Positions 4,741 to 60,429 of a DNA stretch of 64,000 nt are shown here, in pieces. Both the position numbers and the translations under genes were made by a program. Each line of letters begins with the position of its first letter. Position 1 is the stretch's first letter. Source of the stretch: a virus; IMG/VR virus record IMGVR_UViG_3300034072_000373, positions 1 through 64,000 of that record, one strand, 5' to 3'. Under the pieces are notes generated by a model. The model worked only from the letters and a program-made list of their open reading frames with translations, was not told where the DNA came from and searched no databases.

Positions 4741-4743
4741 TTC

Positions 4744-5474: not shown

Positions 5475-5522
5475 TTGACCAGAGGCAACAAGGGGGTTCC
5501 ATTTATATCTCGTAAGCACATG

Positions 5523-5643: not shown

Positions 5644-5670
5644 TCGATTAGTGTGATCGAAATTTTCGAT
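5644..5670. repeat. TCGAT cluster with 15-bp palindrome
   Basis: ATCGAAATTTTCGAT (5656-5670) is a perfect palindrome about its central base, and another TCGAT lies 12 bp to the left (5644-5648), so three TCGA-type sites occur within 27 bp. They lie just after the stop of the 5679-6194 gene. The element may be an operator or part of a weak terminator; on the minus strand it is followed by A-rich rather than U-rich sequence. Confidence 0.4.
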
Positions 5671-5678
5671 TAACGGTT

Positions 5679-6194: not shown

Positions 6195-6255
6195 TATATG
6201 TCCTTTCTGTAGGCTCCTTGATGGACAACCTATATTCATTAATGGAGTAAAAGAT
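6195..6255. promoter_or_regulatory. divergent early/late intergenic region
   Basis: These 61 bases separate the first leftward gene from the first rightward late gene. TATATT at 6231-6236 lies 20 bases before the late ATG and is the best -10-like hexamer; no -35 element is evident, which is what is known for N4 late promoters read by host RNA polymerase with phage SSB. GGAG at 6244-6247 is the late-gene ribosome-binding site. Confidence 0.35.
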
Positions 6256-7218: not shown

Positions 7219-7223
7219 CGAAA

Positions 7224-7255
7224 AATCCCCCCACCTATTTCTAAGTGGGGGGATT
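7224..7255 (+). terminator. strong hairpin after tail gene
   Basis: AATCCCCCCAC (7224-7234) pairs with GTGGGGGGATT (7245-7255) over 11 bp around a 10-base loop, 4 bases after the tail-gene stop. There is only a short T-run after it, so it may act as a terminator on the minus strand as well, or as an mRNA-stabilising structure. Confidence 0.55.
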
Positions 7256-7273
7256 CTCCGAAAGGAGCGGACC

Positions 7274-7377
7274 ATGGCAAGTTCCGCGAGTATGTTATGG
7301 ATCACCAGAGTAAGAAAGACCTAACACCCTTGGCTCCATTTGCAGACTGTTACAAAGCCACCTGTCTGCTGGGCTAA
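7274..7377 (+). pseudogene. small gene with apparent one-base deletion after start
   Basis: A strong AAAGGAG site leads to ATG at 7274, but that frame stops after 16 codons. The overlapping frame from 7276 reads GKFREYVMDHQSKKDLTPLA then PFADCYKATCLLG and a stop, which looks like genuine protein but has no start codon. Restoring one G (ATGGGCAAG for ATGGCAAG) joins the start to this frame and gives a 34-residue protein. Either a true frameshift or a sequencing error in a G run is possible. Confidence 0.4.
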
Positions 7378-7454
7378 CCGACGAACACTTTACAACCTTG
7401 CTTTAAGGTAATCTTGAGTCTAAAAATGTCAAGCCACAAAAGGAGGGCTTGAAT

Positions 7455-7796
7455 ATGACTGACTCAATCGAACAGATTCGCTTACGCTGCTTTCATGAAG
7501 TAATGCACCCAGATAAGCACATGCCTCAGCTTTTGAGCGAAGCTAAGCAGCTTGAAGAATATGTGCTAGGCAAGACTCTAGTGCAGAATAATCCAGTGCA
7601 TTTCATGGATCGTGTAAAGCAGGAAGCTGCTGAGCTTTATACAAAGCTCGAAGCACTCAAGAAATTTATCGCTACCGATACCTTCCAGCAACTCGAAGAC
7701 GAGGAACAGGCAGACATGGAAGCACAGTGTTCTCTCATGGCTCGATACCATGGGACACTTCAGCGTCGTATTCTACGATATGAGAAGAATCAGTGA
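7455..7796 (+). CDS. crAss001_48-like helical protein
   Basis: The 113-residue protein starts MTDSIEQIRLRCFHEVMHPD; AGGAGG is 8 bases before the ATG. Residues 50-113 (FMDRVKQEAAELYTKLEALK, FIATDTFQQLEDEEQADMEA, then a final helix ending RRILRYEK) match the pattern of the small all-helical family named after crAssphage gp48: a helix, 'KFI', an acidic 'L-x-x-EEQ' turn and a closing helix. The family is widespread in phages and its role is not established. Confidence 0.7.
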   Translation: MTDSIEQIRLRCFHEVMHPDKHMPQLLSEAKQLEEYVLGKTLVQNNPVHFMDRVKQEAAELYTKLEALKKFIATDTFQQLEDEEQADMEAQCSLMARYHGTLQRRILRYEKNQ

Positions 7797-7803
7797 GGTA
7801 GGT

Positions 7804-8193
7804 ATGGCTTCGCAAGACCCATATGATCTGTCGAACGATTATAATACTCCCCTCTCTCCTGAGAAGGAAAAAGCTTTTCAGGAGTGGGCAGCTAAAGCTA
7901 ATCGTTTAGGTGATCTAAGAGATTACGATCTGAGAGGTGCTTTTCTCAATCAAGAGAAGGAAGCATCCAACGGACATCTTCCCGACACCTATAAGAAACC
8001 TAATCATCCCACATTCTCTGATGAATCTCAGTATGCCAAGGATGGTTGGGTAGGCGGTTCTTGGAAAGAGAATCCTGAAACCAAGCGCTGGAGTTTCACG
8101 CCTAGTGGGACAAATTTGTTTTGGAGAAAACCGGAGGCATTACAGCAATACTTCAAAGAGTATGAGCCTGATGCTGATCTGATTTTGAATTAG
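7804..8193 (+). CDS. conserved phage protein, probably virion-associated
   Basis: The 129-residue protein starts MASQDPYDLSNDYNTPLSPE; the ATG at 7804 follows GAGGTAGGT closely, while the longer frame overlaps the previous gene. The core 'DLRDYDLRGAF...GHLPDTYKKPNHPTFSDESQY...GSW...FTPS' is a recurrent phage sequence found among head and ejection genes, with no assigned activity. The C-terminus is acidic. Its position between tail and terminase genes suits a late structural or packaging-linked role. Confidence 0.65.
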   Translation: MASQDPYDLSNDYNTPLSPEKEKAFQEWAAKANRLGDLRDYDLRGAFLNQEKEASNGHLPDTYKKPNHPTFSDESQYAKDGWVGGSWKENPETKRWSFTPSGTNLFWRKPEALQQYFKEYEPDADLILN

Positions 8194-8200
8194 GGTTTAA

Positions 8201-8235
8201 GGGGGACAGGTAAAAGGCAGAAAACCCTGTCCCCC
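8201..8235 (+). terminator. 10-bp hairpin without U-tract
   Basis: GGGGGACAGG (8201-8210) pairs perfectly with CCTGTCCCCC (8226-8235). GGGTTT just before it can instead pair with AAACCC inside the loop, so two folds compete. No T-run follows on the plus strand, so it may be an RNA processing or stability element rather than a terminator. Confidence 0.45.
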
Positions 8236-8292
8236 ACAATCTGTCGATGAACCCAACCACATCGAACCAATCGTGTATGACGGGATACTGAA

Positions 8293-8982
8293 GTGATTAC
8301 AAGTGAAGAAGTTGCACTGGCCTTGCCAGCAAATTTGAAATCAGTGGCTACGCAGGAAATTGCTGATTATATCAACAATATCTCTGGTGATCCTCTCATT
8401 GCAGAGCAAATCCGAAACAACTTTGTCTCGTATGCTTCAGTGATGAAGGAAGGTAAGCACAGCACCAAACAATATATGGAAGCTGTCACCTATGCCACGT
8501 TCAAGCTGATGAACTATACCAACAATGAGGCGTATGCTCGGACATTCCCTCAGCGCTATCAGTCAATGGTAGCGAACGGTAAAACTCCGAAAGAAATAAG
8601 CTCATTCGTCCATGCCTACAATAAGGGCAAGCTGGTCAACCAGATTATGGAGCAAACTCTTGTTCCTATGTGGGTTTTGAATCAGCCCTATTTCCAAGAG
8701 GCTATTCTCACGCAGGTTGATCTGATGAGGAACTCTGGCTCGGATAAGGTGAGAAGTGACGCAGCCAATTCACTGCTGACTCATCTGGCTAAGCCAAAGG
8801 ATACGGCTCCCTTGGTTCAGATTGATATGCGTGACACTGGACTGAATGCCATGAAGGAACAGATTCTTCTCTTGGCTCAGGCACAACGTGGAGCAATCGA
8901 GAATGGAACCACGGCAAGGGATATTGCCGCTACTCCACTCTTTCCAAAGGAATCGGAGGTAATTGAGAATGGCGCTGATTAA
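8293..8982 (+). CDS. N4 gp69-like protein, candidate small terminase
   Basis: The 229-residue mostly helical protein has its GTG start at 8293. It directly precedes and overlaps the large terminase by 14 bases. The stretch NFVSYASVMKEGKHSTKQYM-EAVTYATFKLMNY is typical of a DNA-recognition helical domain in N4-like genomes, where the gene next to terminase (gp69 position) is conserved. A small-terminase role follows from position, not from a recognised motif. The long C-terminal helix (MKEQILLLAQAQRGAIENG) could support oligomerisation. Confidence 0.6.
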   Translation: MITSEEVALALPANLKSVATQEIADYINNISGDPLIAEQIRNNFVSYASVMKEGKHSTKQYMEAVTYATFKLMNYTNNEAYARTFPQRYQSMVANGKTPKEISSFVHAYNKGKLVNQIMEQTLVPMWVLNQPYFQEAILTQVDLMRNSGSDKVRSDAANSLLTHLAKPKDTAPLVQIDMRDTGLNAMKEQILLLAQAQRGAIENGTTARDIAATPLFPKESEVIENGAD

Positions 8983-10555
8983 ACAAGAGCTAGATGAATG
9001 GCTGGATCAAGTTAGTTATGAGCATCTGAATAGCACAGACTATATTCCATCTGAGTTAGCTTTGGAGTTCATGAACTTCATTAAGCTGGTCAATGGTAAC
9101 GAGGGGGAAGCTAATAAGACTCCCCCAATGCACCTTGCTATGATGGATAAGCTGGCTGATCCTGTTTCATATCTGGTGAATCTATGTTTCCGTGGTGCAG
9201 CTAAGACTACAGTGTTTGGGGAATACTTCTTCCCATTCCTAGCATTCAGAGAAGAGCTTCCTCATCTGGGTAAGGTCGAGGGTGCTATCTATATTTCTGA
9301 CTCAATGGAAAACGGTGTTAAGTCTCTCCGTAAAAACCTTGAGCATAGATATGAGCAGTCTGATTTCCTGAAGGAATGGATGGAGATTGAATTCACCGAT
9401 CCATACATTGTCTTCAAAAATAAGAATGGTCATAAGCTGGGGCTTCGACTCTTTGGTGCGAAGACTGGTCTTCGAGGCACCAAGATTTTCGGTAAGCGTC
9501 CAACTGTCGCTGTGCTCGATGACTTGATCGGTGATGGTGATGCGAACAGTCAGGCTTCAATGCAGGCAATTCGTAACACTGTTTATCGTGGTCTAAATCC
9601 AGCACTTGATCCAACAAAGAGAAAGGTGATCTTCAACGGGACTCCTTTCAATAAGCAGGATATTATCATTTCTGCTGTGGAATCAGGTGTTTGGAATGTG
9701 AACGTCTGGCCTGTGTGTGAGAAATTCCCTTGCTCTGAAGAAGAGTTCAGGGGTGCATGGCCTGATCGTTTCACGCACGAAAAGCTGATGGAACAGTATG
9801 AACTAGCTGTAGGTAACGGCGAAGTTGCTGCATTCATGCAGGAATTTATGCTGCGTATTACCTCTGAAGAGGAACGGTTGGTTCAGGAAGGGGAGATTCA
9901 ATACTATGATCGTGGGAATCTTCTGAGGAATGAAGGCAACTTCAATTTCTATATCACCACTGACTTTGCCACTTCAGAGAAGCAGAGTGCTGACTACTCA
10001 GTTATCTCTGTGTGGGCATACTCAGCTAATGGTGACTGGTTCTGGGTGGATGGTGTCTGCCAGCGAATGACTATGGATAAGAGTGTTGACCATCTATTTA
10101 GATTGGTGAGCCAATACCATCCTCAACAGGTTGGTGTTGAAATCACTGGTCAACAGGGTGGTTTTATCCAATGGCTCCAGAGAGAGATGATTATCCGAAA
10201 CATTTGGTTTAACTTTGCATCTTCAGCAAAGTCAGGTGAACCCGGTATTCGTCCACTGGTGTCTAAGCTGGCACGATTCAATCTCGTGGTTCCATGGTTC
10301 AAGGCAAAGAAGTTCTATTGGCCAGAGGAAATGAAAGCCTCTGAGATTATGGGAATGTTCCTTGGACAAATCCGTCTAGCCACCTTTAGTGCATTGAAGG
10401 GCAAGGACGATTGTATTGATACAATCTCCCAATTAGCGTATTTGAATCCATGGAAGCCTTCAGAATCTGCTCCGGCCACTCCACATGAATTATCTGTTTG
10501 GGATAGGGCGAGAATGGATTCTGAATCCGCTGCACTCTCTTCCTACATCGTTTAA
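8969..10555 (+). CDS. terminase large subunit (N4 gp68-like)
   Basis: The 528-residue packaging ATPase/nuclease starts at ATG 8969, chosen for GGAGG 8 bases upstream. The Walker A region is the variant CFRGAAKTT (R75-T81); Walker B is VAVLDDLIGD (D184/D185); NGTPFNKQD follows as the coupling motif. The nuclease half starts with YITTDFATSEKQSADYSVIS, whose Asp residues fit the RNase H-like metal site. It translocates and cuts concatemeric DNA at the portal during packaging. The length is as expected for the N4 group. Confidence 0.9.
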   Translation: MALIKQELDEWLDQVSYEHLNSTDYIPSELALEFMNFIKLVNGNEGEANKTPPMHLAMMDKLADPVSYLVNLCFRGAAKTTVFGEYFFPFLAFREELPHLGKVEGAIYISDSMENGVKSLRKNLEHRYEQSDFLKEWMEIEFTDPYIVFKNKNGHKLGLRLFGAKTGLRGTKIFGKRPTVAVLDDLIGDGDANSQASMQAIRNTVYRGLNPALDPTKRKVIFNGTPFNKQDIIISAVESGVWNVNVWPVCEKFPCSEEEFRGAWPDRFTHEKLMEQYELAVGNGEVAAFMQEFMLRITSEEERLVQEGEIQYYDRGNLLRNEGNFNFYITTDFATSEKQSADYSVISVWAYSANGDWFWVDGVCQRMTMDKSVDHLFRLVSQYHPQQVGVEITGQQGGFIQWLQREMIIRNIWFNFASSAKSGEPGIRPLVSKLARFNLVVPWFKAKKFYWPEEMKASEIMGMFLGQIRLATFSALKGKDDCIDTISQLAYLNPWKPSESAPATPHELSVWDRARMDSESAALSSYIV

Positions 10556-10565
10556 GGAATTAAGT

Positions 10566-11255
10566 ATGATTCTGGAAGATGTGTTTACTCTCTTGGCTCA
10601 TGGGGAACTACAGAATCTCTCCATGGCTAAGGGGGGAGGTATCATTGAAGAGAAGCAGCCTGTAATCGTTACTCATATTAACGATGCACTAATGCGTCTC
10701 TATTCTCGATTTGTGATTAAGGAGAATGAACTTCTCCTTGAGTGCTACGAGAATGTCACCCAATATTATTTGAAGATTGAGCACACTAAGTCTCAGGGTG
10801 ATCTACTTCAGTATATCATTGATACAGAAGAGAATCCTTTCATAGAGGATGTTATCAAGGTTCTTGGAGTAACCTCCAATTACCGTGGTCCTGCTGCAAT
10901 CAATGATCCTGATGTATGTTGGAATATCAGGACTCCTCAACCTCAGATGGTTCAGGTTCCTAGTCCAATTGCTGGTGAATCTCTCTCTGTTACCTATCAG
11001 GCATCCCATCCAGTTCTCCATGTCGATGACATGTGTGAAGCTGAAGTGGAGTTGCCTCCTGTCCTCATGAAAGCACTGACCTCATATGTGGCCGGTAAAA
11101 TCTATGGGGATATGAATGGTCAGGAGAATATGGTTAAGTCTCAAGAGCAGATGTCAGTCTTTGAAGGTATCTGTGCTGAAGCCATTGACCGTGATCTAGT
11201 CAATACAAGCTCTTCGTCCACTAACACTAAGTTTCATCAGAGAGGTTGGGTATGA
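10566..11255 (+). CDS. head-tail adaptor-type protein (N4 gp67 position)
   Basis: The 229-residue protein starts MILEDVFTLLAHGELQNLSM; the ATG at 10566 gives a normal spacing after the terminase stop. Two helices, then LMRLYSRFVIKENELLLECY and a C-terminal helix ALTSYVAGKIYGDMNGQ followed by acidic sequence, match the helical bundle plan of phage head-completion/connector proteins. N4 gp67 is the virion protein at the same place. It presumably docks below the portal. Overlaps the next gene as ATGA. Confidence 0.65.
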   Translation: MILEDVFTLLAHGELQNLSMAKGGGIIEEKQPVIVTHINDALMRLYSRFVIKENELLLECYENVTQYYLKIEHTKSQGDLLQYIIDTEENPFIEDVIKVLGVTSNYRGPAAINDPDVCWNIRTPQPQMVQVPSPIAGESLSVTYQASHPVLHVDDMCEAEVELPPVLMKALTSYVAGKIYGDMNGQENMVKSQEQMSVFEGICAEAIDRDLVNTSSSSTNTKFHQRGWV

Positions 11256-11689
11256 ACCACTATTCGTCTTCGTTTAATCCCTTTGGTTCCAATAAGGCCA
11301 TTCTGGTCGATAAGATGATTGGTTCAGCATATGATGTAGTAAAACTTGTTGCCATGAATCTCGCTGAGATTCTCTATGTGGCTCAGAATCTGGATACTAT
11401 TCAGGAGACACTTCAGAACATCCGTAAGGAACGTGTGATTAATATGTCACTGGTTCCTTCGAGTGGTGTGATGATTGTCCCTCTTCCAGCGGATATTCAG
11501 GTTGCTGATATCAGCTACTTCACTGTCCAGATTAAGACCACGACTGGTGATCTCTACACTCCCGATAGCGGATACTTCAAAATCCGTATCGTGAATGATG
11601 CTCTGGAAATCACTGTTGATCCAGCAGCTAGTGCTGCTTTTGTTGGTGCTACCTTCCTCTGGAGCATTGTCTTTAGGGAGGGGCTATAA
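11252..11689 (+). CDS. late structural protein, N4 gp66 position
   Basis: The 145-residue protein starts MNHYSSSFNPFGSNKAILVD. A helical half (MIGSAYDVVKLVAMNLAEIL) precedes a beta-rich half (SLVPSSGVMIVPLPADIQVA ...) that looks like a small beta-sandwich. The start overlaps the upstream stop (ATGA) and its stop overlaps the next start (TAATG), so the set 10566-12099 is translated as a unit. It is likely a tail or appendage component by context; no domain is identified. Confidence 0.6.
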   Translation: MNHYSSSFNPFGSNKAILVDKMIGSAYDVVKLVAMNLAEILYVAQNLDTIQETLQNIRKERVINMSLVPSSGVMIVPLPADIQVADISYFTVQIKTTTGDLYTPDSGYFKIRIVNDALEITVDPAASAAFVGATFLWSIVFREGL

Positions 11690-23797: not shown

Positions 23798-25873
23798 ATG
23801 GCTGCACTAACTTGGAGAAACGTTGCTGCCCCTGATTTCTCAGGAGTTCAGGGGGGCATCAGCAATGCTGGTGAATTCTTTAATCGTGCTTTCTCCGGTG
23901 GTCAGAAGACTGTGGAGAATATTCAGAATATCCGTGAGGATAATGCTGTAAAGGAAGTCTTGGGCAGAGCCTTGGCTTCCAATGATCCTGCTGCAATTCA
24001 GGCAATGGCTGCTGAAGCTGCTCAGAATCCTAATTTCACTCTTCGTGGTTTGGATACTCTGAACCGTCAGGTGGATACCCTTCAGCGTAGGAATCTTACT
24101 GAAGAACAGATTCTTGGTGCCAGACAGGGTAGAGAACAGGGAGCTACTCTGTTTAATCGTGGTGAGCAGGAATATAGCGCAAGAGAAGCTGCCAGAGGTG
24201 AAATCCTGAAACTATATGGTTCAGGTATGACACCTGATAAGATTGCTCAAGCTGCTGCATCCAATCCAATTCTGGCTGCATTGCCTACCAAGGATTTGAT
24301 GGGAATTATTGATGACTCCTACAATCGTAGGGATCGCAATCTAAATTATGATATTCGCTCAACTGAATTTGCAAACAGTCAGGCAGATCGTAATGACGCA
24401 TTTGTGGTAGCAGACGCTCTATCCACCATTGACCAATCTTCATTGACTGATGAAGAAAGATTCTCCGCACTTGAGAGAATGCGGGGTAATCTCACCCCTA
24501 GACAATATACACTTGCCCGTAATCGTCTTATGGGTGGTGGAACAGGTGGTGCTGGCGGAGGTGAATTTGCTGCTCCTGCATCTGGCTCATTTTCTGCTGG
24601 TGGTTCCAATTATGCTTTTGGAGCGCCACAGAAAGCATATGCAGATGTCTTCTCCAGTGCTGGTGTCAGTAACAATGTTGTCGCTGGTCTACTAGGTAAT
24701 GCCCACGTTGAGGGTGGTTGGACTGGTAAAGAAGGTGACGGTGGTGCTGCTGGTGGTATTGTCCAGTGGAGGGATGGAAGACGGGATGCTTTCATTCAGC
24801 GTAATGGTGTTGACCCAACAAAAGCATCACCTGAAGTTCAGGCAAGACATGTGATGTGGGAACTTTCTACTCCTGAAGGTAGAAAGGTTGCTGGTATTAC
24901 GGAACAGCAAGCCAATGCCATTTTGAATGCTAAGTCACCTGAAGAAGCTGCTGAATATATTGACCGTTTTTATGAGCGTTCATCTGGTCAGCATCGTCAA
25001 CAGCGTATTGCTGCTGCGGCTGCATATGGTCAATTGACTCGTCCCGGTGATCCTGTTGCTAATGGGCTTCAGGGAATTGCAAACAGTGTGGACACTGATC
25101 GTGCAAGAGCACAACAGGGCGGTTCAGTTGGTGCCAGAATTCTCCGTGAGAATGCTGGTTCAAAGAAGGATCGTGCTGATGTTATCAGTGATGTGATGAC
25201 TTCTCTTGGAGCCTCTGACAGAGGAACAGTTGAGAATATCTTCAATGATATGCGTAACCGTTTCCTTGCCAATGGTTGGGAAGCTCCAAATGATGCAATC
25301 ATTGGTGCCGCTCTAAAGACTGGTTCAACCTATGATCGTAGACTTGGTGATCGTATCTGGGATTGGACAGGTAATCTTTTTGGAGCCACGGATGCTGTAT
25401 CAGGCGGACTTCAGGTAGATAGAGATAATCTCTATAATCGTCTGAAGGATATTGTGCAGAGTCCTCAAGCTTCAAATGTGGCTGTTGTGGAAGCTCAGAG
25501 AAATGCTGGGGAACAAGCTGCATCTGTTGCAGATGCACAGTATCAGCAGGCAAGAGCACAACGTGAATATGCAGAGAATGAGGTTAGATCAGGCCGTAGA
25601 CCTAACATCAATCTCAAACCATATTATGATCGTGAGAACCAAGCACTAGCAACTTCACAGGCTGCAAATGCTGCTGTTAGGAATTCAGGTTTGACTAATC
25701 CCGGTGTTCAGCCTGTTGGTTCCTCAACAGGTAAACCTACTCAGGGAACACCTAAGTCAACTGATGACTTTGTGCGTAATGCTGCTGATCGACGTAGGCA
25801 AACTGCACCGCCTCCAAGAGCATCCAATGGATGGCAATTGCTCAAAGATACGGTAACTGGTATCTTCGACTAA
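23798..25873 (+). CDS. ejection protein with tail-lysozyme domain (N4 gp51 position)
   Basis: The 691-residue protein is mainly helical and Ala/Gln/Arg-rich. Residues about 280-410 form a distinct module: KAYADVFSSAGVSNNVVAGL, LGNAHVEGGWTGKEGDGGAA, GGIVQWRDGRRDAFIQ and EEAAEYIDRFYERSS, matching phage tail lysozyme-type (PF18013-like) domains, with Glu in 'NAHVEGGW' as the likely catalytic residue. It would open peptidoglycan locally during entry. A glycine-rich linker (GGGTGGAGGGE) leads into it. The C-terminus is disordered. It is followed by a terminator. Confidence 0.78.
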   Translation: MAALTWRNVAAPDFSGVQGGISNAGEFFNRAFSGGQKTVENIQNIREDNAVKEVLGRALASNDPAAIQAMAAEAAQNPNFTLRGLDTLNRQVDTLQRRNLTEEQILGARQGREQGATLFNRGEQEYSAREAARGEILKLYGSGMTPDKIAQAAASNPILAALPTKDLMGIIDDSYNRRDRNLNYDIRSTEFANSQADRNDAFVVADALSTIDQSSLTDEERFSALERMRGNLTPRQYTLARNRLMGGGTGGAGGGEFAAPASGSFSAGGSNYAFGAPQKAYADVFSSAGVSNNVVAGLLGNAHVEGGWTGKEGDGGAAGGIVQWRDGRRDAFIQRNGVDPTKASPEVQARHVMWELSTPEGRKVAGITEQQANAILNAKSPEEAAEYIDRFYERSSGQHRQQRIAAAAAYGQLTRPGDPVANGLQGIANSVDTDRARAQQGGSVGARILRENAGSKKDRADVISDVMTSLGASDRGTVENIFNDMRNRFLANGWEAPNDAIIGAALKTGSTYDRRLGDRIWDWTGNLFGATDAVSGGLQVDRDNLYNRLKDIVQSPQASNVAVVEAQRNAGEQAASVADAQYQQARAQREYAENEVRSGRRPNINLKPYYDRENQALATSQAANAAVRNSGLTNPGVQPVGSSTGKPTQGTPKSTDDFVRNAADRRRQTAPPPRASNGWQLLKDTVTGIFD

Positions 25874-25906: not shown

Positions 25907-25943
25907 TGCTATGTGAGGTCAAAATCACCTAAAGGTATTGTGT

Positions 25944-28900
25944 ATGGCAAACCCCTCTTCCACCATTATGAATGAGTATCTGTCTAAGGCTAAGCAAACA
26001 GGTGTTGCTAATGCCACTGCACAGAAGAAGCAGACTATGGCTGCTCAAGCATCTGTAAATGATGATGCTCTTTACCGTATTGCTTCTGCTCAAAGTAATG
26101 GCACTGGCAATTCCATGGAAGGTTACGAACGTGACCTTAGAACCATGGGAACCTTTGATCTAATCGGTAAGTATGGTTCGGGGATTGTTGGTGATCTGTC
26201 ACGGCTAGAAAATGCTAGAGAGCGTTATCGTGGTGATGAGTCATCCCAGCGTGGTTTTGGTGATGTAGTTGGGGATGCTGCTATTGGTGTGCCCACTGCA
26301 TTTGCATCTGGTATCCATTCAATTGCAAATTTGATCGAAGCCCCATTTGCTCCAGAGACTGCTGCAAGAGATGCGTTGGCAAATGCTAAGTTTGGTGAAT
26401 GGGCTAACTCATTCCAGAGTGATGCACTCAATCAGCGTAGACGTGCTGCTGGTGCCGATCTCCAAAATACTCAAGCAGATAATAAGGCTGCACAGGAAAG
26501 AGGTGAGATTAACTCGCTAGAGCGTATGGGCAGAGATGCCTATGATGCTGCTGCACGTTATCTGGATGATGGTGCGCTTACATCAGACGTTGTTGCTCAG
26601 GGTGTTGGTTCACTCTTTATTGGTGGTCCAATGATTAAGGGCTTCAGTAAGGTTGGTCAGGGTATCCTGAAAGCTGCTGGCCGTGGTGAATCTGTCCTAG
26701 CTGGTAGGGTTGTTAATGCTGCTGCTGGTTCACTAGGTGTAGGCACACAGGAAGCTGGTGGTGCTTACGATCAGACTGTTCAGGCTGCTATGGAAAGAAT
26801 GGCAGATAGAACTGATCTCACTGAAGAACAGAAGCTGGAACTAGCTAATAAGGCTGGTCTGGAAGCTGCTGCTATTCAGGGAACTGTTGCTGCTGGGATT
26901 GGTCTAATTCCCGGCATGACTAACCTTGAACGTGCTCCACTTGCTCTTCGTGGTTCAGTCCGCAATTCAGTCAAAGCTATTCTGGGTGAGACTCTTGAAG
27001 AAGCTACTCAATCAACTTCAGGTCAGTTGGCTCAGAATCGTGCTATCCGTGATGTGGTTGATCCAAATCAGGATATGCTTGAAGGTGTGGGTGAACAGAC
27101 TGCTCTCGGTGCAATTGGTGGCTTTGGTTCTGCTGGTATGGTTCAGGCTCCAAGCCTTGCAGCTAATACTGCAATGGCTCCTGTCCGTGCTATCATGGCT
27201 AAGGGTGCTGAAATCAATTCACGTAGGGAAGCTGCACAGGTTCAGGAATTCTCCAATAATGTAGAAACTGTTCGTGCTGCTGGTCCTGTGAATATGGATG
27301 CAGTTAACACTGCCATTGATAACTCTGATCTTGATCCAGAGATTAAGAACACTGCTCGTGCTCAGATTGATGGGATGATGCAGCGTGCTTCATACACCCC
27401 TGAACAAACACGCAATTATTCTCCAGAACTTCAATCATATCTGGAAGATTCAATTGATAAGTTTGATGCTCTCGACACTGCTATGGCAATTGTGGAAGAT
27501 TCTGACTTCACAAATGCACAGCGTCTGGAAGCAGGTGCTTATATCGCACAAACTGTTCTTCAGAATAATTCTCAGATCAAAGCTGATCTAGATGAAGCAA
27601 TTGCTGCTATTCATGAGGATGACCCTGAATTTGATAAGCTCATTGAATACAATGATCTTATGGATAAGATGGGTAGCCATCCTATTGTTCAGCGCATGGT
27701 TCAGCAGTTTAGGGAACAGGTTGCGGCAGTCACCCCTGAACAGGTGAATGCTGAAGCTATGGCAACTCCTGAAGGTAAGCAGACTGCTAGTGCAGTAGCT
27801 ACTGCTGTGGCTTCTGATCCTGAAGCTGTAAGCCCAGAGGTTATCTCAACCATTTTGGAACATGATGAATCTGATCCTGAATTCTCACCAGTGAATCGTA
27901 AGATTCTGGAAGGTGCTCAGGCATATCATGATATGAAGGAAACTCTGCGTAAGAATGCAGAGCAGATTGCCATTCAGAATATCAATGCTGTCACTGACAA
28001 CATGATTAAGTCACGCTTTGAGGATAACCCACAGGAAGGTTCTCCTTTGGCTCTATCACTGCGTGACCATTACACCCGTTTCTATAATGCACTGATGGCC
28101 AATGATGATGTCTCTGCAAAGGATTACCTAGATAATCTAGGTTTCTTTGCTGCACACATGCAGAACAAGTTGGCCACTGTGAACTCAGCTATTGAGGACA
28201 ATGCTTATAGTGAAAAGCTGGCTAAGCCTTATATGGCAGTGGTTCCAGCCAGAACTGCTGCACAGCGTAAGTGGGTTCCATCCAATCTCAAGATTTGGAT
28301 GAATGGCAGAGCAAAGGACAGTGTGCGTCTGGCTAAGCGTATCCAGCTAGAAGCTCAGGCAATCACCAATACCTATAACAACCTTGTGGAGCAGAATCCT
28401 GAATTCAATCTTCCTACGATTGATGTAGGCACACTGAACCCTCTCTTTGATGGTTCAATTGATGAAGTCGTAAATCGGTATAAGGGTCAAAAGAATGTTC
28501 AAACGTCTACTTCTGACAGTAGCGGAAACGCTAATCCTCAGCGGACTCAACAGTCTGAAGGAACGTCAGTCACGCAAAGCAGCCGAGAAGGCACTGAAGA
28601 AAGCGGAAGCGAAACTTCAGGAACAGAATCCCGTGGTTCCAGAGTAACTCCTGAACAGGCACGGGGTATCTCTGACAGAGCACTACAGTCACGAATCACC
28701 AGTCTCGAATCAATGATCGAAGACAATAAGGCGACTGTGCAAGACAGAGCTACCCTTGCCGTTCTCCGTAAGGAGAATGCCAATCGTAATGCTGAAGCAA
28801 TGCAGCGTGAACGAGAGGAACAGGAAGCTGAAGCTAAGGCTAGAGCGACTGAATCAAATCAGGATCAAAAGCCTAAAACTCCAGAAGTCACTGATTCTTC

Positions 28901-31900
28901 AGAAGATAATTCTGAGGAAAGCACTGATGCGTCTGAAGAATCAAATGTGGATGAAGAAGTTGAGGAGCCAAATGCTCCTACCCTTCAGTCAGTTTACACT
29001 GATCTTCATGAAGGCTCTAACTTCCTGACTATGTTCAAGGCTAAGTTTAAGAAGAGCCGTATTGCAACGAACACTTCACCGCAGGCTTTTGTAGGTGATG
29101 CACTATTCGATAAGGAAAGTCTGAAGAAGGTTTCTGGAACCAATGCAAATGGTTATACCAAGAAGGTAGCTCAGGCTTATCACAATCTATTCCGTTCAAT
29201 GGGTGTTGTTCAGGATGCTCTGAACAGGCAGCTTGCTGCTGCCATGAAACAGAATCCCAACATGTTTAAGCGGGATGATAGATTCAACTTGGTTCAGGGT
29301 AAGGTTCTGAACTTCGTTGGTCCTGATGGTAAGTGGAATCCTCAGATCATTGAGAAGGCAATCATGGCTGCAATGCAGTTTGTGATTACCGGCAACAGTG
29401 TCCACTACAACAAGGATAAGGAAGATATTGCCAAGGCATTTGGTATGGACCCTTCCAATGTAACTCCTTGGATTGAAGGCGTAGTCAACAACACCATCAT
29501 GTATAATGATGCGGTCTATCAGCTATCACGTAAGATTGCTGATTACCTTGGTGTGTCTGTTGATCCTAATGCCCCAATGGGCATTGCCAACGGCATGATG
29601 GATGGTCTGGCTATTGAAGTGCTGAGAGCCTTTGAGACTGCTGGCTATATTGAATCTGGTATTCTCAAGACTGGTAAGAGCCAGCATGGTTATCTCGATT
29701 TCCGTGGCTTCACTCCCGGTAAGAAGACTAAGCTACAGAATGAGGCACGCCAGAGAATTAAGGATGTGTCTTCATATCCCAATGCAATGGATGACATTGT
29801 TCTGACTGAGAGAGACAATCCAGTCTCGATTGGTGAGCAGTTGGATCGTATGCCTAAGACTCGTCTGCGTCAGGATACTCCCCTTACTCGTGATGAGCAG
29901 CGGGCTGTTAGACTGATCCAGAATACTCCACTGTATGCCAATACAACTATGGCTAATCTGTATCAGAAGCTGGGCAAGGATAATCTTGTTCGTCTGTTTG
30001 GTTCACCAATTGCTGATCCAGCTAAGTTGAACAGGGAAGACCTACTCTCAAAGGAAGGCAAGAACCTCACTGTGATTTCTGCCTTTGATGCCTTTGAGAA
30101 GTATTTCTCCATGCTTCAGGAATATGCCAATGACACCAAGGATGCTCTGGGCAATGTTCCAATGTATTTTGGTTCAGAGATTACCTCAGTCGGTCGTCTG
30201 ATGATGATCGGTGAGCAGAACCCTGTTGCTGCTAAGATCATTCGTGAATTCCTCCTACCTACTAAGGCAACGGTGGATATGAATGATCCAGTCAATGAGC
30301 ATAATTACTATCTCATGATGGCTCAGGCTTTGGGTAAGAAGCTGGACAAGATGACTCCAGAACAGGCTGTTCAACAGGCTAAGGATACCCTGTTCTCTGA
30401 GGACATGGGTAATCTGCTGGAGACTCTTGAAACTCTGATGGGTGATGGTGAAGTCACTGTAGAGGCAATGAATGTCCTACAGGATAATATCAAATCGCCA
30501 TTCATGCTTCATGCTCTGACTGATTTCATTCGTTACAATCAGGCTAAGGCTGAAGGCAATCTTCAGAGATTCACCACCTCACTGTATCTGGAAGCTGATG
30601 GTAGAACCAATGGTCCTGCTGGTGCCCTGTTCCTGTATGGAACTGGTGCATTCACTTTGAACCAGCTTCGTGATTTCCAGAGAGTAGGTGTGTTCCCCGG
30701 TGATGCTGCTGGGACTGAAGCTGAGCCTAACTTCTCAGGTAAGCAGAAGATTGCTGATCTTTATGAACTAACTGCTGATCGCTTTACTAAGCGTCTTGGT
30801 TCACTGGTCGATGATATTCTGAATACTGCACGGGCTGCTAATCGTAAGGGTCAGATCACCGATAGATATGAGAACCAAATCCGTAACATGTTTGGTGCGG
30901 TGACTACGCTTATCCACGATACAGGTAATGGCATTGTCACCAATGCAAAAGGTAAGCTGGAGACTACTCGTGGTTCTGTGAAGAATCCTCTGACCAAGTT
31001 TATCTATGGTGCAGGTGAAGCCTCAATCTCTGCTGGCATCACTCAGGATATTCTGGCCAGCTTCTATGAGGCAGTTTCAGAACATCTGACCACAGGCAGC
31101 AATCCAGTAGCTTTTGCTAACATGCAGAATCTCATTGGACACTTGGTTCATAATAAGCTGGGGACTCGTAAGTCTGATGGTGTGAGCTTTGTTTTTGACA
31201 AGCAGAACACCGATTTCTCATTCCCTGCTGATGAAGCTGGTTGGAGAAACTTCAAGTTTACTTCTGAACAGGTCAACACAATCAATGCCAATGTCAGAGC
31301 AATGTATGTGAATCCTATGGTTCGTTCCATCAATTCAGTGATGGTCGATACTCTGGGAACCACTGGTCTGCTTATCGCAGCTTCCAACATGCAGAATGAA
31401 CTGTATGCAAAGCTGATGGATGAAGCGATCAAGAATGCTTTGAAGGAAAAGAAGCGTGCTGATCCTAAATTCCAGAACCATCACTTCCTGTCAGAGAATG
31501 AACTGAAGAAGATCAAGAATTCACTCAATTGGGTTAAGCCCCAGATTGATGAGAATCTCCAGTCATTGAATCTCAGCCCTACTGAGGCTGGTCTGACTAT
31601 GGACAGTGGTAGTGAACTGAAGTTTGTGAGCAGCCTTGATGGCAATCACAATGTTCCCGGTCAGGTCAATCTTCCCGGAGCCATGGGTGTTAGAGCAGTG
31701 CCTCTGACCACCATTAACTTTGGTGATGCCAGAATGGTAATCAATGCTTTCATGAAGGGTATTGAAAAGGTTCTGGCTGTCTATGACGGTATGCACATGT
31801 CACTGGATCGTATCCCTGTGGATTCGGTCAAGTATAATGAAGCTGTCAGTGAAGCATGGGACTTCAATGCTCTGAAGGTTTTCACTGAGCAGTTTGAAGG

Positions 31901-34900
31901 TATGGTTAAGAACCTGTCACCTGAAATGCTGGCTGATATGGCATCAGATGAAAATACTCCTGAAAGCATTCTGCGTGATTTGCAGAGAGCTTCACGGGAG
32001 ATTGATGCTCGTCAGTATGCACTTAATCAGGTTGCACTATCTGTAGACCAGATGGCTGCTACTGGTTCATCATTCACCAAGAACATGGATAAGACCGCTG
32101 TTGATGAACAGCAGACTTTTCAGATGCTGAATGATGCCTATGATGAATTCATGGCAAAGCAGGAGCCAAAGGAAGTATCTAACTTTGAGCTTCCTTCACG
32201 TATGAAGGGTCTTGCTGTTGTCCATAAGGAATCTGGTGCATATGTAATTCGTGCTAATAAGCTGATTGAGAACATTGCAGCATTGACCACCGATAAGAAT
32301 CTTATCTCATTGGTTCAGTCACTGAAGCTGCCTAATAGCGAAGATGTAAAGATCATCTTTGGCTCAGCAGAAGCTCGTAGAAAATATGCTCCTGACCTAA
32401 TGGCTAAGAGCAAATCAACTACTCGTGGTCTGTCTGATCCAGCTACCAATCGTATTCTATTGAACACGCAGTCAATGGAAACACTGGTGCATGAACTTAT
32501 TCATGCTGCCACTTTCAATACTGTTTACAATAGCTTGAATGGTTCTGCTTCAGAAGAACAGATGGATGCTGTTGAACGTATTGAAGCTTTGATGGACCAG
32601 TTCATTAACATGGATTATGATACGACTGGTTGGTCAGATAAGGCTAAGACTGCATATCGTCGTCTAACCAACGTCATTAATAATGCACTGTCTCAGAATG
32701 AGAATGATCTCTTTGTTGATGAGATTCTCAATCGAGCAATTGCTGTTAATGAATTTATGGCTTGGACACTTTCCAATCAGGAGTTGGGATATGTTGCATC
32801 GAAGACGCAGGCTTCACCAGAGATTGTCCGCTGGACTCAAAAGGCTTGGAGAGCGGTTCAGCAATTCTTCCGTGCTGTTAAGTTCTGGGAACCCAGACAT
32901 GATATCCTTAGCAATCTGCGGTTTAACACTCAGATTCTGACTACAGAGACTGAGGCACCTTCGGTTGCTGATATCGCCAATGGTATCTCACTGGCTCATG
33001 AAGAGGCAGAAAGCCCTGTGCTGCGTAAGCTGTTCTCTCAGTTGAGCACTGCTCTTCAGGGTAGAAGAGAAGAAGCCAATGGCACTGCTAACGTAGAGAG
33101 CATTGGTATCGGTGGTAGGGTAGCAAATGACTTCAGTGCTGCATTCCCAATGGATGCTGAACAGAAGAATCAGTTTGCTGTAATGGTTACTGCTATGTCT
33201 CAGGGTATGGGCCTTGAAGGCAATGCCTTCGCTCGTATCGCTGATATCTATCAGACTGTTCTGGAGAAGCTGGATGTCACTGACTTCCTAGCAAATCCTG
33301 AATCAACCAACCCTGCTGAGATTGCTACGGCTACTGCAAAGTATAATGCTGTTATGGGTAACACCACTGCACTCACTGGTGCAGATGGAGTGTCAACCCG
33401 TATCCCAGCATTCTTGGCTCTGTCACTAATTGATCCAGAATTCAGAAAGGTTCTTGAGAAGCTCAAGACTCCTAAGAATAAGGATTGGAAGTTTGAAGGT
33501 GTTGGAGCCACTCTGAATGATCTTGGCTCAAGAGCTATGCAGGGTCTGAACAACTATGTTGCTCCTACCGGCAAAGCTACCAATGCTAAGGAAGCAGTGG
33601 ACAATCTCATTGGGCATATGACTCGTGATCTGTCCAAGGCACAGACTGCTGCTGAAATGGCATCACGTAAGGGTCATGGTTATCTGGACAAGGCGAATGA
33701 TTTCTTTGTCGAGAACATGGAACGTCTGAGCAAGATTGCTGATGAGAAGCTCTCACGGGTAATGGATACTACCCAGAATAAGTATGTGAATATCGCTGCT
33801 GGTGTCGGTAAGATGCTGACAGGCGTTATCAATGCTGAAGTGGGTGAAGCCAACTCAGAAAGCATGATGCAGATGATTAACCGTCTGAAAGGTTGGGATA
33901 CTATCCGTGCAGCCTATTCAGATATCGTTGGTAGAACCAAAACCAATGCTGGCGTCTATGATCTTATCAAGCTTGTGAAGTCAGTGGTTTCACAGGGCCG
34001 TGAGAAGTATCGTGAGCAGTTGCCCAAGATTATCAAGGGTAAGTTCAAGAAGGCTCCTACGGCTGCACAGTGGACTTCACTGTTCCGTGGTATTGCCAAG
34101 ACTGACATTGCTGCTCTTCGGAACCATATGACCCAGAGTGAAATGCTTGAGGTCATTGGTTCAGATGCAAATGTCCGTGCAGAGATTGCTAGACTGGAAG
34201 GTATCCTGCCTGACAATGTTCTGAAGGCTGACAGAATTGCTAAGGCTAAGCAGCTTGCCAATTTCATGAACACAGGTGTTTATGGCGATATGCTTCTGCG
34301 TAATGCAAAGGCTGTTGCTGATCTGAGAGGCATGAACAATCAGGCGAATTCAACTGTTGATGAAGTTCAGACAATTGATTCACTGATTTCCCTTTATGCT
34401 TTCCAGAGCATGGATGCTGCACATCGGAACACCATTCGTGAACTGATGACCAATGAGCCAGATGCTATGAAGTATCTGATTGCTCAGGTGCAGGGTGCTA
34501 GACAGGATGAATTGGCCAAGGTCACTGATGATGTCGCCTACAATGTTTATAAGGGCTATACCCCTTCTGAACAGCGTGAAGGCATCAGCTTGATCGTTGC
34601 TGAAGATACCGACCGTGCAAGACTGGAACGTCTGGGTTATGTCCGTAAGGGTGACTACAATGGCTCAAACAAGGAGACTCGTGCGAGCTTCAATACCAAG
34701 GGCTATTACTATTCACCTGTGACTGGTAACAACCCATTCACTCAGGGCATTTCACAGAATGTGAATGAGACTGTCGGCGGTGTTGATCCTATCCGTGGTT
34801 TCAGCTTTGGTGTTCGCCATGCTGGTATCATTATGGACCCACGTAAGGTTCAGCGGATTGCTAATAGCCCACGGACTGATCGTGGTAATGAGAGCCTGTC

Positions 34901-36311
34901 ACCCATCTTCAACAAGGATGGGGATATCATTGCCTTTGAGCGGACTATTGATCCTGCAATGGATGCACTGCTGGATCGTAGCACTGATCTTGCTGATATG
35001 CTGGGTGCATGGAGAGGTCGTCAGTTTGAGGAAGAGAATGCAATCGTCTTCAATACTGAGCTTCTGGGTGCTCTGAAGGATATGCACGATAGACGCCCTG
35101 CTAATAGCAACGGTGACTATATCAATATTCTGGATGATGCTGAGTTGGCTCGTGATCCAGTGTTGGCTGATGCTGTGAAGCTGCTGTCTCCTAGAATGAA
35201 GGCAGAAGCTGCTGAACTGTTCGGTGAGAACAATTTCATTCCTGTCCGTAAGGATATGCTGAATGATGTTGTTGGTTATCGTGCTGCATCTGTAGGTGAC
35301 TCATGGACTGGTGTTACCCGGTTCAATGAGAACACACAGAATGCAATCGTTAATCTGGCAACTGGTTTTCTGGGGAGGGATGCCTTCAAGAAACTGGTTC
35401 AGGCTGAACGGTTCGTGGAAGGTGTAGTGGGCGATATTCGTAAGACCATTGTGGTTCGGTCAGTGATCGTCCCATGGGGCAACTTTATCTCTAACATGGG
35501 TCAGCTACTTACCCGTGGTGTTCCACTACATGCTTTGATCTCTGGTGTTCCAAAGAAGCTGAATGAAATTCAGACCTACGCTAAGAGCCAGAGAGATCAT
35601 ATTCGTTATGAGTCTGATCTGCTGGCAGCTAAGGGTGCTAACGATACTAGAGGAATTGCTCAGGCTGAAGCTAAGCTAAAGACAATTGAGGATATGCAGA
35701 AGCGTCTAAGCATCTGGCCTCTAATTGCTGCTGGTGAGTTCAGTTCAATTGCTGAAGATTTGGATAAGGCTGATAATCCACTTGCCACTGGTAGATGGAT
35801 GGATTGGATTGAATCCAAGATTCCTCAGTCTGGTATGTTGAAGGAGCCACTGAAATACTATTGGCTGGCTTCAGATACCCCTCTGTTCAAAGCACTACAG
35901 ACTTCAGTGAACTATGGTGACTTTGTTGCAAAGGCTGTCCTGTATGACCATATGACCAAGACTAAGAAGATTTCAAAGGAAGATGCTCTTCCCAAGATTT
36001 CTGAAGAGTATGTCAATTACGATAAGGTTCGTGGTCGGGTTAGACAGAAGCTGGAGAATGTTGGCTTGCTCTGGTTCTGGAACTTCAAGCTTAGATCAAC
36101 AAAGGTTGCGCTAAGTATGATCCGAGAGAATCCAGTCCATGCCCTGTTCTATTCCTTGGTTCCAACTCCAGATATTCTTGGTGATATTGATTCACCACTT
36201 CTGGATAACATCTTCTATCAGGCAACCGATGGTTCGCTAGGATATTCGATTGGACCGGGGATGGCAGTTCAGGGATTCAATATGAATCCATGGAACAGTT
36301 TGATCTTCTAA
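25944..36311 (+). CDS. virion RNA polymerase (N4 gp50-like), 3455 aa
   Basis: This giant protein is packaged in the capsid and injected to transcribe early genes. The ATG at 25944 has AAAGG 8 bases upstream. Residues 1-850: helical N-terminal domain. About 850-1020: Ser/Glu/Thr-rich linker. Polymerase: TxxGR at T1414-R1418; motif A EADGRTNGPAG (D1552); motif B R1676-x3-K1680-x7-Y1688-G; motif C VYDGMHMS (D1948). The R1418-D1552 distance (134) nearly equals that in N4. Soon after, at 2183-2187, HELIH is a zincin-type metal-binding motif. Residues 2300-3455 correspond to the C-terminal part that N4 needs for packaging the enzyme. The total length is close to the N4 protein (3500). Confidence 0.95.
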   Translation: MANPSSTIMNEYLSKAKQTGVANATAQKKQTMAAQASVNDDALYRIASAQSNGTGNSMEGYERDLRTMGTFDLIGKYGSGIVGDLSRLENARERYRGDESSQRGFGDVVGDAAIGVPTAFASGIHSIANLIEAPFAPETAARDALANAKFGEWANSFQSDALNQRRRAAGADLQNTQADNKAAQERGEINSLERMGRDAYDAAARYLDDGALTSDVVAQGVGSLFIGGPMIKGFSKVGQGILKAAGRGESVLAGRVVNAAAGSLGVGTQEAGGAYDQTVQAAMERMADRTDLTEEQKLELANKAGLEAAAIQGTVAAGIGLIPGMTNLERAPLALRGSVRNSVKAILGETLEEATQSTSGQLAQNRAIRDVVDPNQDMLEGVGEQTALGAIGGFGSAGMVQAPSLAANTAMAPVRAIMAKGAEINSRREAAQVQEFSNNVETVRAAGPVNMDAVNTAIDNSDLDPEIKNTARAQIDGMMQRASYTPEQTRNYSPELQSYLEDSIDKFDALDTAMAIVEDSDFTNAQRLEAGAYIAQTVLQNNSQIKADLDEAIAAIHEDDPEFDKLIEYNDLMDKMGSHPIVQRMVQQFREQVAAVTPEQVNAEAMATPEGKQTASAVATAVASDPEAVSPEVISTILEHDESDPEFSPVNRKILEGAQAYHDMKETLRKNAEQIAIQNINAVTDNMIKSRFEDNPQEGSPLALSLRDHYTRFYNALMANDDVSAKDYLDNLGFFAAHMQNKLATVNSAIEDNAYSEKLAKPYMAVVPARTAAQRKWVPSNLKIWMNGRAKDSVRLAKRIQLEAQAITNTYNNLVEQNPEFNLPTIDVGTLNPLFDGSIDEVVNRYKGQKNVQTSTSDSSGNANPQRTQQSEGTSVTQSSREGTEESGSETSGTESRGSRVTPEQARGISDRALQSRITSLESMIEDNKATVQDRATLAVLRKENANRNAEAMQREREEQEAEAKARATESNQDQKPKTPEVTDSSEDNSEESTDASEESNVDEEVEEPNAPTLQSVYTDLHEGSNFLTMFKAKFKKSRIATNTSPQAFVGDALFDKESLKKVSGTNANGYTKKVAQAYHNLFRSMGVVQDALNRQLAAAMKQNPNMFKRDDRFNLVQGKVLNFVGPDGKWNPQIIEKAIMAAMQFVITGNSVHYNKDKEDIAKAFGMDPSNVTPWIEGVVNNTIMYNDAVYQLSRKIADYLGVSVDPNAPMGIANGMMDGLAIEVLRAFETAGYIESGILKTGKSQHGYLDFRGFTPGKKTKLQNEARQRIKDVSSYPNAMDDIVLTERDNPVSIGEQLDRMPKTRLRQDTPLTRDEQRAVRLIQNTPLYANTTMANLYQKLGKDNLVRLFGSPIADPAKLNREDLLSKEGKNLTVISAFDAFEKYFSMLQEYANDTKDALGNVPMYFGSEITSVGRLMMIGEQNPVAAKIIREFLLPTKATVDMNDPVNEHNYYLMMAQALGKKLDKMTPEQAVQQAKDTLFSEDMGNLLETLETLMGDGEVTVEAMNVLQDNIKSPFMLHALTDFIRYNQAKAEGNLQRFTTSLYLEADGRTNGPAGALFLYGTGAFTLNQLRDFQRVGVFPGDAAGTEAEPNFSGKQKIADLYELTADRFTKRLGSLVDDILNTARAANRKGQITDRYENQIRNMFGAVTTLIHDTGNGIVTNAKGKLETTRGSVKNPLTKFIYGAGEASISAGITQDILASFYEAVSEHLTTGSNPVAFANMQNLIGHLVHNKLGTRKSDGVSFVFDKQNTDFSFPADEAGWRNFKFTSEQVNTINANVRAMYVNPMVRSINSVMVDTLGTTGLLIAASNMQNELYAKLMDEAIKNALKEKKRADPKFQNHHFLSENELKKIKNSLNWVKPQIDENLQSLNLSPTEAGLTMDSGSELKFVSSLDGNHNVPGQVNLPGAMGVRAVPLTTINFGDARMVINAFMKGIEKVLAVYDGMHMSLDRIPVDSVKYNEAVSEAWDFNALKVFTEQFEGMVKNLSPEMLADMASDENTPESILRDLQRASREIDARQYALNQVALSVDQMAATGSSFTKNMDKTAVDEQQTFQMLNDAYDEFMAKQEPKEVSNFELPSRMKGLAVVHKESGAYVIRANKLIENIAALTTDKNLISLVQSLKLPNSEDVKIIFGSAEARRKYAPDLMAKSKSTTRGLSDPATNRILLNTQSMETLVHELIHAATFNTVYNSLNGSASEEQMDAVERIEALMDQFINMDYDTTGWSDKAKTAYRRLTNVINNALSQNENDLFVDEILNRAIAVNEFMAWTLSNQELGYVASKTQASPEIVRWTQKAWRAVQQFFRAVKFWEPRHDILSNLRFNTQILTTETEAPSVADIANGISLAHEEAESPVLRKLFSQLSTALQGRREEANGTANVESIGIGGRVANDFSAAFPMDAEQKNQFAVMVTAMSQGMGLEGNAFARIADIYQTVLEKLDVTDFLANPESTNPAEIATATAKYNAVMGNTTALTGADGVSTRIPAFLALSLIDPEFRKVLEKLKTPKNKDWKFEGVGATLNDLGSRAMQGLNNYVAPTGKATNAKEAVDNLIGHMTRDLSKAQTAAEMASRKGHGYLDKANDFFVENMERLSKIADEKLSRVMDTTQNKYVNIAAGVGKMLTGVINAEVGEANSESMMQMINRLKGWDTIRAAYSDIVGRTKTNAGVYDLIKLVKSVVSQGREKYREQLPKIIKGKFKKAPTAAQWTSLFRGIAKTDIAALRNHMTQSEMLEVIGSDANVRAEIARLEGILPDNVLKADRIAKAKQLANFMNTGVYGDMLLRNAKAVADLRGMNNQANSTVDEVQTIDSLISLYAFQSMDAAHRNTIRELMTNEPDAMKYLIAQVQGARQDELAKVTDDVAYNVYKGYTPSEQREGISLIVAEDTDRARLERLGYVRKGDYNGSNKETRASFNTKGYYYSPVTGNNPFTQGISQNVNETVGGVDPIRGFSFGVRHAGIIMDPRKVQRIANSPRTDRGNESLSPIFNKDGDIIAFERTIDPAMDALLDRSTDLADMLGAWRGRQFEEENAIVFNTELLGALKDMHDRRPANSNGDYINILDDAELARDPVLADAVKLLSPRMKAEAAELFGENNFIPVRKDMLNDVVGYRAASVGDSWTGVTRFNENTQNAIVNLATGFLGRDAFKKLVQAERFVEGVVGDIRKTIVVRSVIVPWGNFISNMGQLLTRGVPLHALISGVPKKLNEIQTYAKSQRDHIRYESDLLAAKGANDTRGIAQAEAKLKTIEDMQKRLSIWPLIAAGEFSSIAEDLDKADNPLATGRWMDWIESKIPQSGMLKEPLKYYWLASDTPLFKALQTSVNYGDFVAKAVLYDHMTKTKKISKEDALPKISEEYVNYDKVRGRVRQKLENVGLLWFWNFKLRSTKVALSMIRENPVHALFYSLVPTPDILGDIDSPLLDNIFYQATDGSLGYSIGPGMAVQGFNMNPWNSLIF

Positions 36312-60352: not shown

Positions 60353-60429
60353 TGGCGCTCCCTGAAGGACTCGAACCCTCAACCAACCGACTAGAACTCG
60401 GTTGCTCTATCCATTTGAGCTAAGGGAGC
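60353..60429 (-). tRNA. tRNA-Arg (anticodon UCU)
   Basis: The minus strand folds into a complete cloverleaf: acceptor GCTCCCT/AGGGAGC (7 perfect pairs), D-arm GCTC/GAGC, anticodon stem ACCGA/TCGGT, loop GTTCTAG with anticodon TCT (60393-60395), variable TGGTT, T-arm GAGGG/CCTTC with loop TTCGAGT, discriminator G and an encoded CCA (60353-60355). It reads AGA (and AGG by wobble). AGA is a rare codon in GC-rich hosts, so the gene probably compensates for the phage's lower GC content. Loop positions 32 and 38 are both G, which is uncommon. Confidence 0.93.

What the first reader, a model, noticed from the sequence alone, without database searches (positions are those of the whole stretch)
32400..32700. 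Zinc-metallopeptidase motif inside the virion RNA polymerase
About 235 residues after motif C the giant protein reads SMETLVHELIHAATF, an exact HExxH with the hydrophobic setting of zincins (residues 2183-2187). A protease next to a polymerase that is threaded into the host could cut the polypeptide free, act on host proteins, or be a relic. I know of no such activity described for N4 vRNAP.
Basis: partly seen in the sequence, partly recalled or inferred. Interest (0 to 1): 0.8.

Follow-up and report, generated by a model that had tools for sequence, protein, structure and literature searches.

The report
Zincin protease domain in phage polymerase
The giant RNA polymerase that this N4-like phage carries in its virion and injects into bacteria contains an intact-looking zinc-protease domain; it is real and present in every relative examined, but it was already described for phage N4 in 2017, and only what it cuts remains unknown.

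Summary
Confirmed, but not new. The window encodes an N4-like virion RNA polymerase (25944-36311, 3455 aa) whose only HExxH (HELIH, 32490-32504) lies directly after the polymerase domain. Among 90 divergent vRNAPs (median pairwise identity 27%), only four of 325 aligned positions are invariant: the two His, the catalytic Glu, and a Glu 87 residues on (NEFMAW, 32751-32753), the missing third ligand. That is a complete HExxH...E zincin signature. AlphaFold2 models the domain confidently (pLDDT 89, pTM 0.87). Foldseek finds N4 vRNAP itself and then, weakly, mostly anthrax lethal factor. Purifying selection is about as strong as on the polymerase, so a relic is unlikely. The domain also occurs in RNAP-less giant, cysteine-poor proteins such as phiKMV gp37.

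Iyer et al. 2017 (PMC5512222) already assigned this N4 region to the zincin metallopeptidases and proposed self-processing or host cleavage. The 2025 N4 cryo-EM preprint (PMC12633501) notes the motif. No activity test turned up in the papers searched. That preprint's protein was purified in 0.5-1 mM EDTA, so its lack of degradation does not test a zinc enzyme. Most likely it is a working peptidase switched on after injection; the substrate (itself, ejection partners or host proteins) is unresolved.

The parts
25944..36311 (+). N4-like virion RNA polymerase (gp50 homologue), 3455 aa from the ATG (ORF listing starts it at TTG 25938); no cysteine
   Evidence: phrog_2206 E=0 over residues 26-3456; matches full-length N4 vRNAP chains 9pnr/11gp; 0 Cys
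28635..28937 (+). low-complexity linker between N-terminal and polymerase domains
   Evidence: column conservation 0.15-0.16 with more than 50% gaps; equivalent to the N4 linker 907-1006 described in PMC12633501
28938..32156 (+). T7-type RNA polymerase domain
   Evidence: phmmer to 3q0a/2po4 over residues 1001-2073; Pfam PF21867, PF21894, PF21769
32073..32189 (+). poorly conserved linker between polymerase and zincin domain (approximate limits)
   Evidence: conservation 0.25 around residues 2051-2100; low pLDDT at the start of the model; N4 equivalent 2102-2123 is disordered (PMC12633501)
32190..32942 (+). zincin metallopeptidase domain (N4 C1 domain equivalent)
   Evidence: AlphaFold2 pLDDT 89, pTM 0.87 for 32115-32972; Foldseek 9pnr E=7.8e-7, then mostly anthrax lethal factor
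32490..32504 (+). HExxH (HELIH): two predicted zinc ligands and the catalytic Glu
   Evidence: invariant in 92 of 92 distinct vRNAP sequences
32748..32765 (+). NEFMAW; Glu codon 32751-32753 is the predicted third zinc ligand
   Evidence: Glu invariant in 90 of 90 alignable sequences and kept in L056 beyond a roughly 250-residue insertion
32985..36311 (+). large C-terminal (C2) region
   Evidence: 31-sequence alignment A3, 41% mean column identity; no relative in PDB sequences other than N4 vRNAP
23798..25873 (+). upstream gene at the position of N4 gp51 (ejection protein), cysteine-free, with a phage-lysozyme domain (about 24629-25024)
   Evidence: phrog_6126 virion structural protein; PF18013 E=4.9e-19; 0 Cys in 690 aa

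Best explanation
It is an intact zincin-like metallopeptidase domain of the polyvalent-protein type, built into the injected virion RNA polymerase between the polymerase and its C-terminal domain. His2183, His2187 and Glu2270 (ATG numbering) would hold Zn2+, and Glu2184 would activate the water (shown: the residues and their invariance; inferred: metal binding and catalysis). I think it works as a peptidase only after the chain has been threaded into the host, refolded and picked up zinc (inferred). The likeliest substrates are the ejected virion proteins themselves, that is vRNAP or its channel partners, either to free or remodel the polymerase or to dismantle the ejection apparatus; host proteins are nearly as likely. 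Rough odds: zincin domain 0.95; catalytically active 0.8; acts after injection 0.6; self or partner substrate 0.45, host substrate 0.3.
For: Only 4 of 325 positions are invariant across 90 vRNAPs at 27% median identity, and they are the two His, the catalytic Glu and the downstream Glu; a structural site would not need Glu2184. HExxH was found in 78 of 78 loci picked by an RNAP motif alone. AlphaFold2 pLDDT 89, pTM 0.87, with three strands before the HExxH helix and the Glu on a later helix. Non-N4 Foldseek hits are mostly anthrax lethal factor, the same protein that HHpred gave Iyer et al.. BFVD hits include polyvalent proteins and a crAssphage 'RNAP associated protein fused to zincin protease'. 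Profile-profile match to zincins of other giant phage proteins E=2.3e-14 with the catalytic residues aligned. dN/dS 0.08-0.13 within one clade, like the RNAP domain. N4 vRNAP is packaged uncut (PMC5512222), which argues for action later.
Against: No proteolysis has been shown in any paper found. The similarity to solved zincins outside phages is weak (E at least 0.26, TM-score about 0.25), and Pfam metallopeptidase models stay under their cut-offs. Recombinant N4 vRNAP showed no degradation (PMC12633501), although the purification buffers contained EDTA and the protein also survived expression in E. coli. Neither linker has a conserved cleavage-like motif.
Confidence: 0.7

Rival explanations
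1. The domain is a delivered effector that cleaves one or more host proteins soon after injection, for example to help takeover or counter a defence; it has no role in processing the phage's own proteins.
For: Zincins in conflict systems can be effectors, and Iyer et al. list this option. No conserved self-cleavage motif in the linkers. Some vRNAPs carry a second HExxH domain.
Against: The domain is present in every vRNAP seen, from phages of enteric, pseudomonad, Vibrio, rhizobial and roseobacter hosts, more like a core function than a variable effector.
Confidence: 0.3
2. The fold is kept for structure only: the site binds zinc or nothing, and helps to fold the C-terminal domain or supports encapsidation and autoinhibition of the polymerase, without proteolysis.
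For: The C-terminal region is reported to be needed for encapsidation, and the CTD inhibits the polymerase (PMC12633501). No degradation of purified N4 vRNAP was reported.
Against: The catalytic Glu is as invariant as the ligands, which a structural zinc site does not require. The same four residues are invariant in RNAP-less relatives. The no-degradation result came from EDTA-containing preparations.
Confidence: 0.15
3. It processes the polyprotein before or during packaging, like the cleavage of P1 DdrB.
For: DdrB carries a related domain and is processed before packaging (PMC5512222).
Against: N4 vRNAP is packaged as an unprocessed protein, and a 370 kDa virion RNAP was identified by mass spectrometry in LIT1 virions (PMC3715699).
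Confidence: 0.05
4. The HExxH belongs to another metalloenzyme, such as the alpha-ketoglutarate HExxH hydroxylase type cited in the N4 preprint.
For: The N4 preprint mentions radical SAM and alphaKG-HExxH enzymes next to zincins.
Against: The later-helix Glu, the predicted element order and the Foldseek and HHpred matches point to zincins.
Confidence: 0.05
5. A chance HExxH in a long protein.
For: None beyond the size of the protein.
Against: 0.025 expected and 1 found; invariant in 92 of 92 sequences.
Confidence: 0.001

Closest known systems
Zincin-like metallopeptidase of N4 vRNAP (Iyer et al. 2017, PMC5512222; N4 residues 2130-2448; C1 domain 2124-2375 in cryo-EM structure 9PNR, PMC12633501)
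   Same: Same protein, same position after the polymerase, same HExxH and downstream Glu; profile match E=4e-105
   Different: Only sequence divergence (about 29% identity over the domain)
Zincin of phiKMV/LUZ19 gp37 internal virion protein (PDB chain 9sfn_G) and related giant phage proteins
   Same: HExxH plus Glu on a later helix; hhalign probability 98.3, E=2.3e-14; large cysteine-poor proteins
   Different: No RNA polymerase in the chain; shorter spacing in many members
Anthrax lethal factor metalloprotease domain (solved structures, by name)
   Same: Nearest non-phage fold match, HExxH...Glu zincin
   Different: Weak similarity (E at least 0.26, TM-score about 0.25); no claim of shared substrate or membership
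crAss-like phage RNAP-associated protein fused to zincin protease (BFVD A0A345MT41)
   Same: A zincin joined to a phage RNAP-associated protein
   Different: That RNAP is of the unrelated double-psi beta-barrel type (PMC7886860); structural match only (E=0.038)

Membership tests
Zincin-like metallopeptidase (HExxH...E, polyvalent-protein type) | HExxH on a helix | tested here: met
   HELIH in the modelled helix 121-141; 92 of 92 sequences
Zincin-like metallopeptidase (HExxH...E, polyvalent-protein type) | Third ligand Glu on a later helix | tested here: met
   Glu in modelled helix 203-220, invariant in 90 of 90; distances to the His not measured
Zincin-like metallopeptidase (HExxH...E, polyvalent-protein type) | Core of three strands with a preceding helix and two later helices | tested here: met
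   Order helix, strand 79-82, strands 105-108 and 113-116, HExxH helix, Glu helix
Zincin-like metallopeptidase (HExxH...E, polyvalent-protein type) | Significant fold match to a solved zincin outside phages | tested here: inconclusive
   Anthrax lethal factor is the main non-N4 match but at E 0.26 or worse
Zincin-like metallopeptidase (HExxH...E, polyvalent-protein type) | Homology to other phage giant-protein zincins | tested here: met
   hhalign E=2.3e-14 to A4; hmmsearch 9sfn_G E=3.2e-9
Zincin-like metallopeptidase (HExxH...E, polyvalent-protein type) | Bound zinc and peptidase activity | not testable with these tools
   No experiment found in the papers read; the refinement table of the N4 structures lists no metal and the protein was purified with EDTA
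N4-like virion RNA polymerase | Giant T7-type polymerase with N4 domain order in the N4 gene context | tested here: met
   phrog_2206 over the whole length, Pfam vRNAP domains, N4 PDB matches
Pfam SprT-like / DUF6782 / M91 metallopeptidases | Score above the curated cut-off | tested here: not met
   Window domain: DUF6782 16.0 of 27 bits, SprT-like 14.3 of 25.6 bits; M91 matched only other members, best E 0.028

The most novel reading that the evidence does not exclude
A general injection-activated protease: short-tailed phages of unrelated groups build the same zincin into their giant ejected, cysteine-poor proteins. It stays off while the chain is packed or unfolded, and once refolded and zinc-loaded in the host it cuts the ejected proteins, in N4-like phages releasing the polymerase from its autoinhibitory C-terminal domain or dismantling the ejection channel.
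Probability: 0.2. Interest if true: 0.75.

Novelty: new member of a known kind. Interest (0 to 1): 0.3.

Why it matters
The domain is already predicted in the literature, so the sequence finding itself is ordinary. What is left is a clear, testable open question: every schitovirus vRNAP examined keeps a complete zinc-protease site, yet in the papers read nobody has tested it, and the one full-length structure came from EDTA-containing preparations. If active, it would be a protease delivered with the first transcription machinery of the phage.

Tried and rejected
Chance motif: rejected by conservation. Losses of the motif: none found; the two loci without it (L072, L082) end before the domain. 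Glu apparently missing in a dozen loci by a fixed pattern was a pattern failure; alignment shows it in all but L056, where an insertion moved it, and L046 (a copy of the broken pSb-1 gene). The first full-length alignment failed to line up this domain (no HExxH column) and was replaced by a local one. Conserved autocleavage motif in the two linkers: not seen. C2 homologues in the PDB: none except N4. PADLOC: nothing. Fold of the domain inserted in L056: not established (low pLDDT). A genome-contig scan with alignment A1 could not run. Atomic coordinates of the model and of 9PNR were not available, so zinc-site geometry and accessibility in the tight complex were not checked.

Full report
What is there. 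The window is 64 kb of a 76 kb virus record. Its longest ORF, 25938-36311(+), is an N4-like virion RNA polymerase: phrog_2206 matches over the whole length, Pfam finds the three N4 polymerase domains, and phmmer matches the full-length N4 vRNAP chains. It is the only HExxH in the protein, 0.025 expected.

Conservation. N4 itself reads LIHELVHASTF at the same place. I fetched 22 named schitovirus vRNAP loci through hits to a query spanning the polymerase and zincin domains and 80 metagenomic ones through the single polymerase motif EADGxTNG, the latter not selected for HExxH. HExxH was present in all 78 of the 80 whose contig reaches the domain and in the named phages down to about 20% identity in the polymerase region. 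In the alignment of 90 intact domains, median pairwise identity 27%, exactly four of 325 window positions are invariant: His, Glu and His of HExxH and a Glu 87 residues downstream of the first His, in NEFMAW. Within one clade, dN/dS of the domain is 0.08-0.13, against 0.08-0.18 for the polymerase and 0.10-0.11 for C2; one more distant pair gives 0.26.

Fold. AlphaFold2 with 67 aligned sequences gives pLDDT 89 and pTM 0.87. The order is helix, strand, two strands, HExxH helix, further helices, Glu-bearing helix, which agrees with the core that Iyer et al. describe. Foldseek against the PDB returns N4 vRNAP (E=7.8e-7) and then mainly anthrax lethal factor, individually weak (E at least 0.26). 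Against predicted viral structures it returns vRNAPs, large polyvalent proteins and a crAssphage protein annotated as RNAP-associated fused to a zincin protease. No coordinates were available to me, so the metal geometry is not measured.

Relatives outside vRNAP. A profile of the domain finds 9sfn_G, an internal virion protein of 1337 aa (E=3.2e-9). Its fragment matches phiKMV-group gp37, a DarB-like protein and several N4-like vRNAPs directly. An alignment of 26 such domains has the same invariant H, E, H and E and matches the vRNAP profile with hhalign E=2.3e-14. These sit in large ORFs (many 1.3-2.8 kaa) with 0-3 cysteines and no polymerase motif. Of 104 vRNAPs, 99 have no cysteine and none more than one, after trimming the N-terminus; the Cys-free nature of LUZ7/LIT1 vRNAP was linked to passage through the tail and periplasm before (PMC3715699). 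The zincin is thus a feature of giant phage proteins that are known or likely to be ejected, not of RNA polymerases as such. That these metagenomic giants are ejected is inference.

What was known. Iyer et al. [quoted passage not shown] they note that N4 vRNAP is packaged unprocessed. PMC8472413 repeats this for Pectobacterium phage CB1. The N4 cryo-EM preprint PMC12633501 defines the C1 domain 2124-2375 and notes the conserved HExxH. So the finding is a correct rediscovery in a new phage.

Mechanism. The invariance of the catalytic Glu together with the ligands argues for an active enzyme rather than a structural site or relic. Uncut packaging points to action after entry. The C-terminal domain inhibits the polymerase in N4 and the zincin sits just after the linker between them, so cutting that linker is an attractive model; but the linker is among the least conserved parts, and relatives without a polymerase keep the domain, so I weight a more general role on ejected proteins, or on host proteins, at least as highly. 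The reported absence of degradation in purified N4 vRNAP is not a test, because that protein was prepared with 0.5-1 mM EDTA; it does show that expression in E. coli without added chelator did not destroy it. Shown: sequence, conservation, predicted fold, homology. Inferred: zinc binding, catalysis, timing, substrate.

Verdict. Observation confirmed, interpretation supported, novelty low, residual interest in the untested function.

Noticed in passing
L056 (IMGVR_UViG_3300050196_000085), 8122-9753: A vRNAP in which a roughly 250-residue segment with its own HETIHAF...E motif is inserted inside the zincin domain, between the HExxH helix and the NEFMAW helix; relatives 46-54% identical lack it. 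The fold of the insert was not established (low pLDDT).
   Followed up: partly
[quoted passage not shown]
   Followed up: partly
L002-L112 and L116-L168: vRNAPs and the related zincin-bearing giants are almost cysteine-free (99 of 104 vRNAPs have none); in the window vRNAP and the upstream ejection protein have none while many other long ORFs have about 1%.
   Followed up: partly
L013 (Shigella phage pSb-1, NC_023589), 649-11437: vRNAP is annotated as three ORFs; the middle frame ends 28 residues after the start of HExxH, so the zincin is split there (broken gene or sequencing error; intact relatives exist).
   Followed up: no
L021 (Salmonella phage As2), 1039-11828: vRNAP is also annotated as three overlapping ORFs.
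   Followed up: no
L023 (RPP1, residue 1294) and L020 (V14, residue 1189): A second HExxH motif with hydrophobic surroundings (IHEMAH / IHEAGH) upstream of the usual one, in line with Iyer's 'one or more' metallopeptidase domains.
   Followed up: no
window 60353-60429: A tRNA-Arg gene with anticodon TCT on the minus strand.
   Followed up: no
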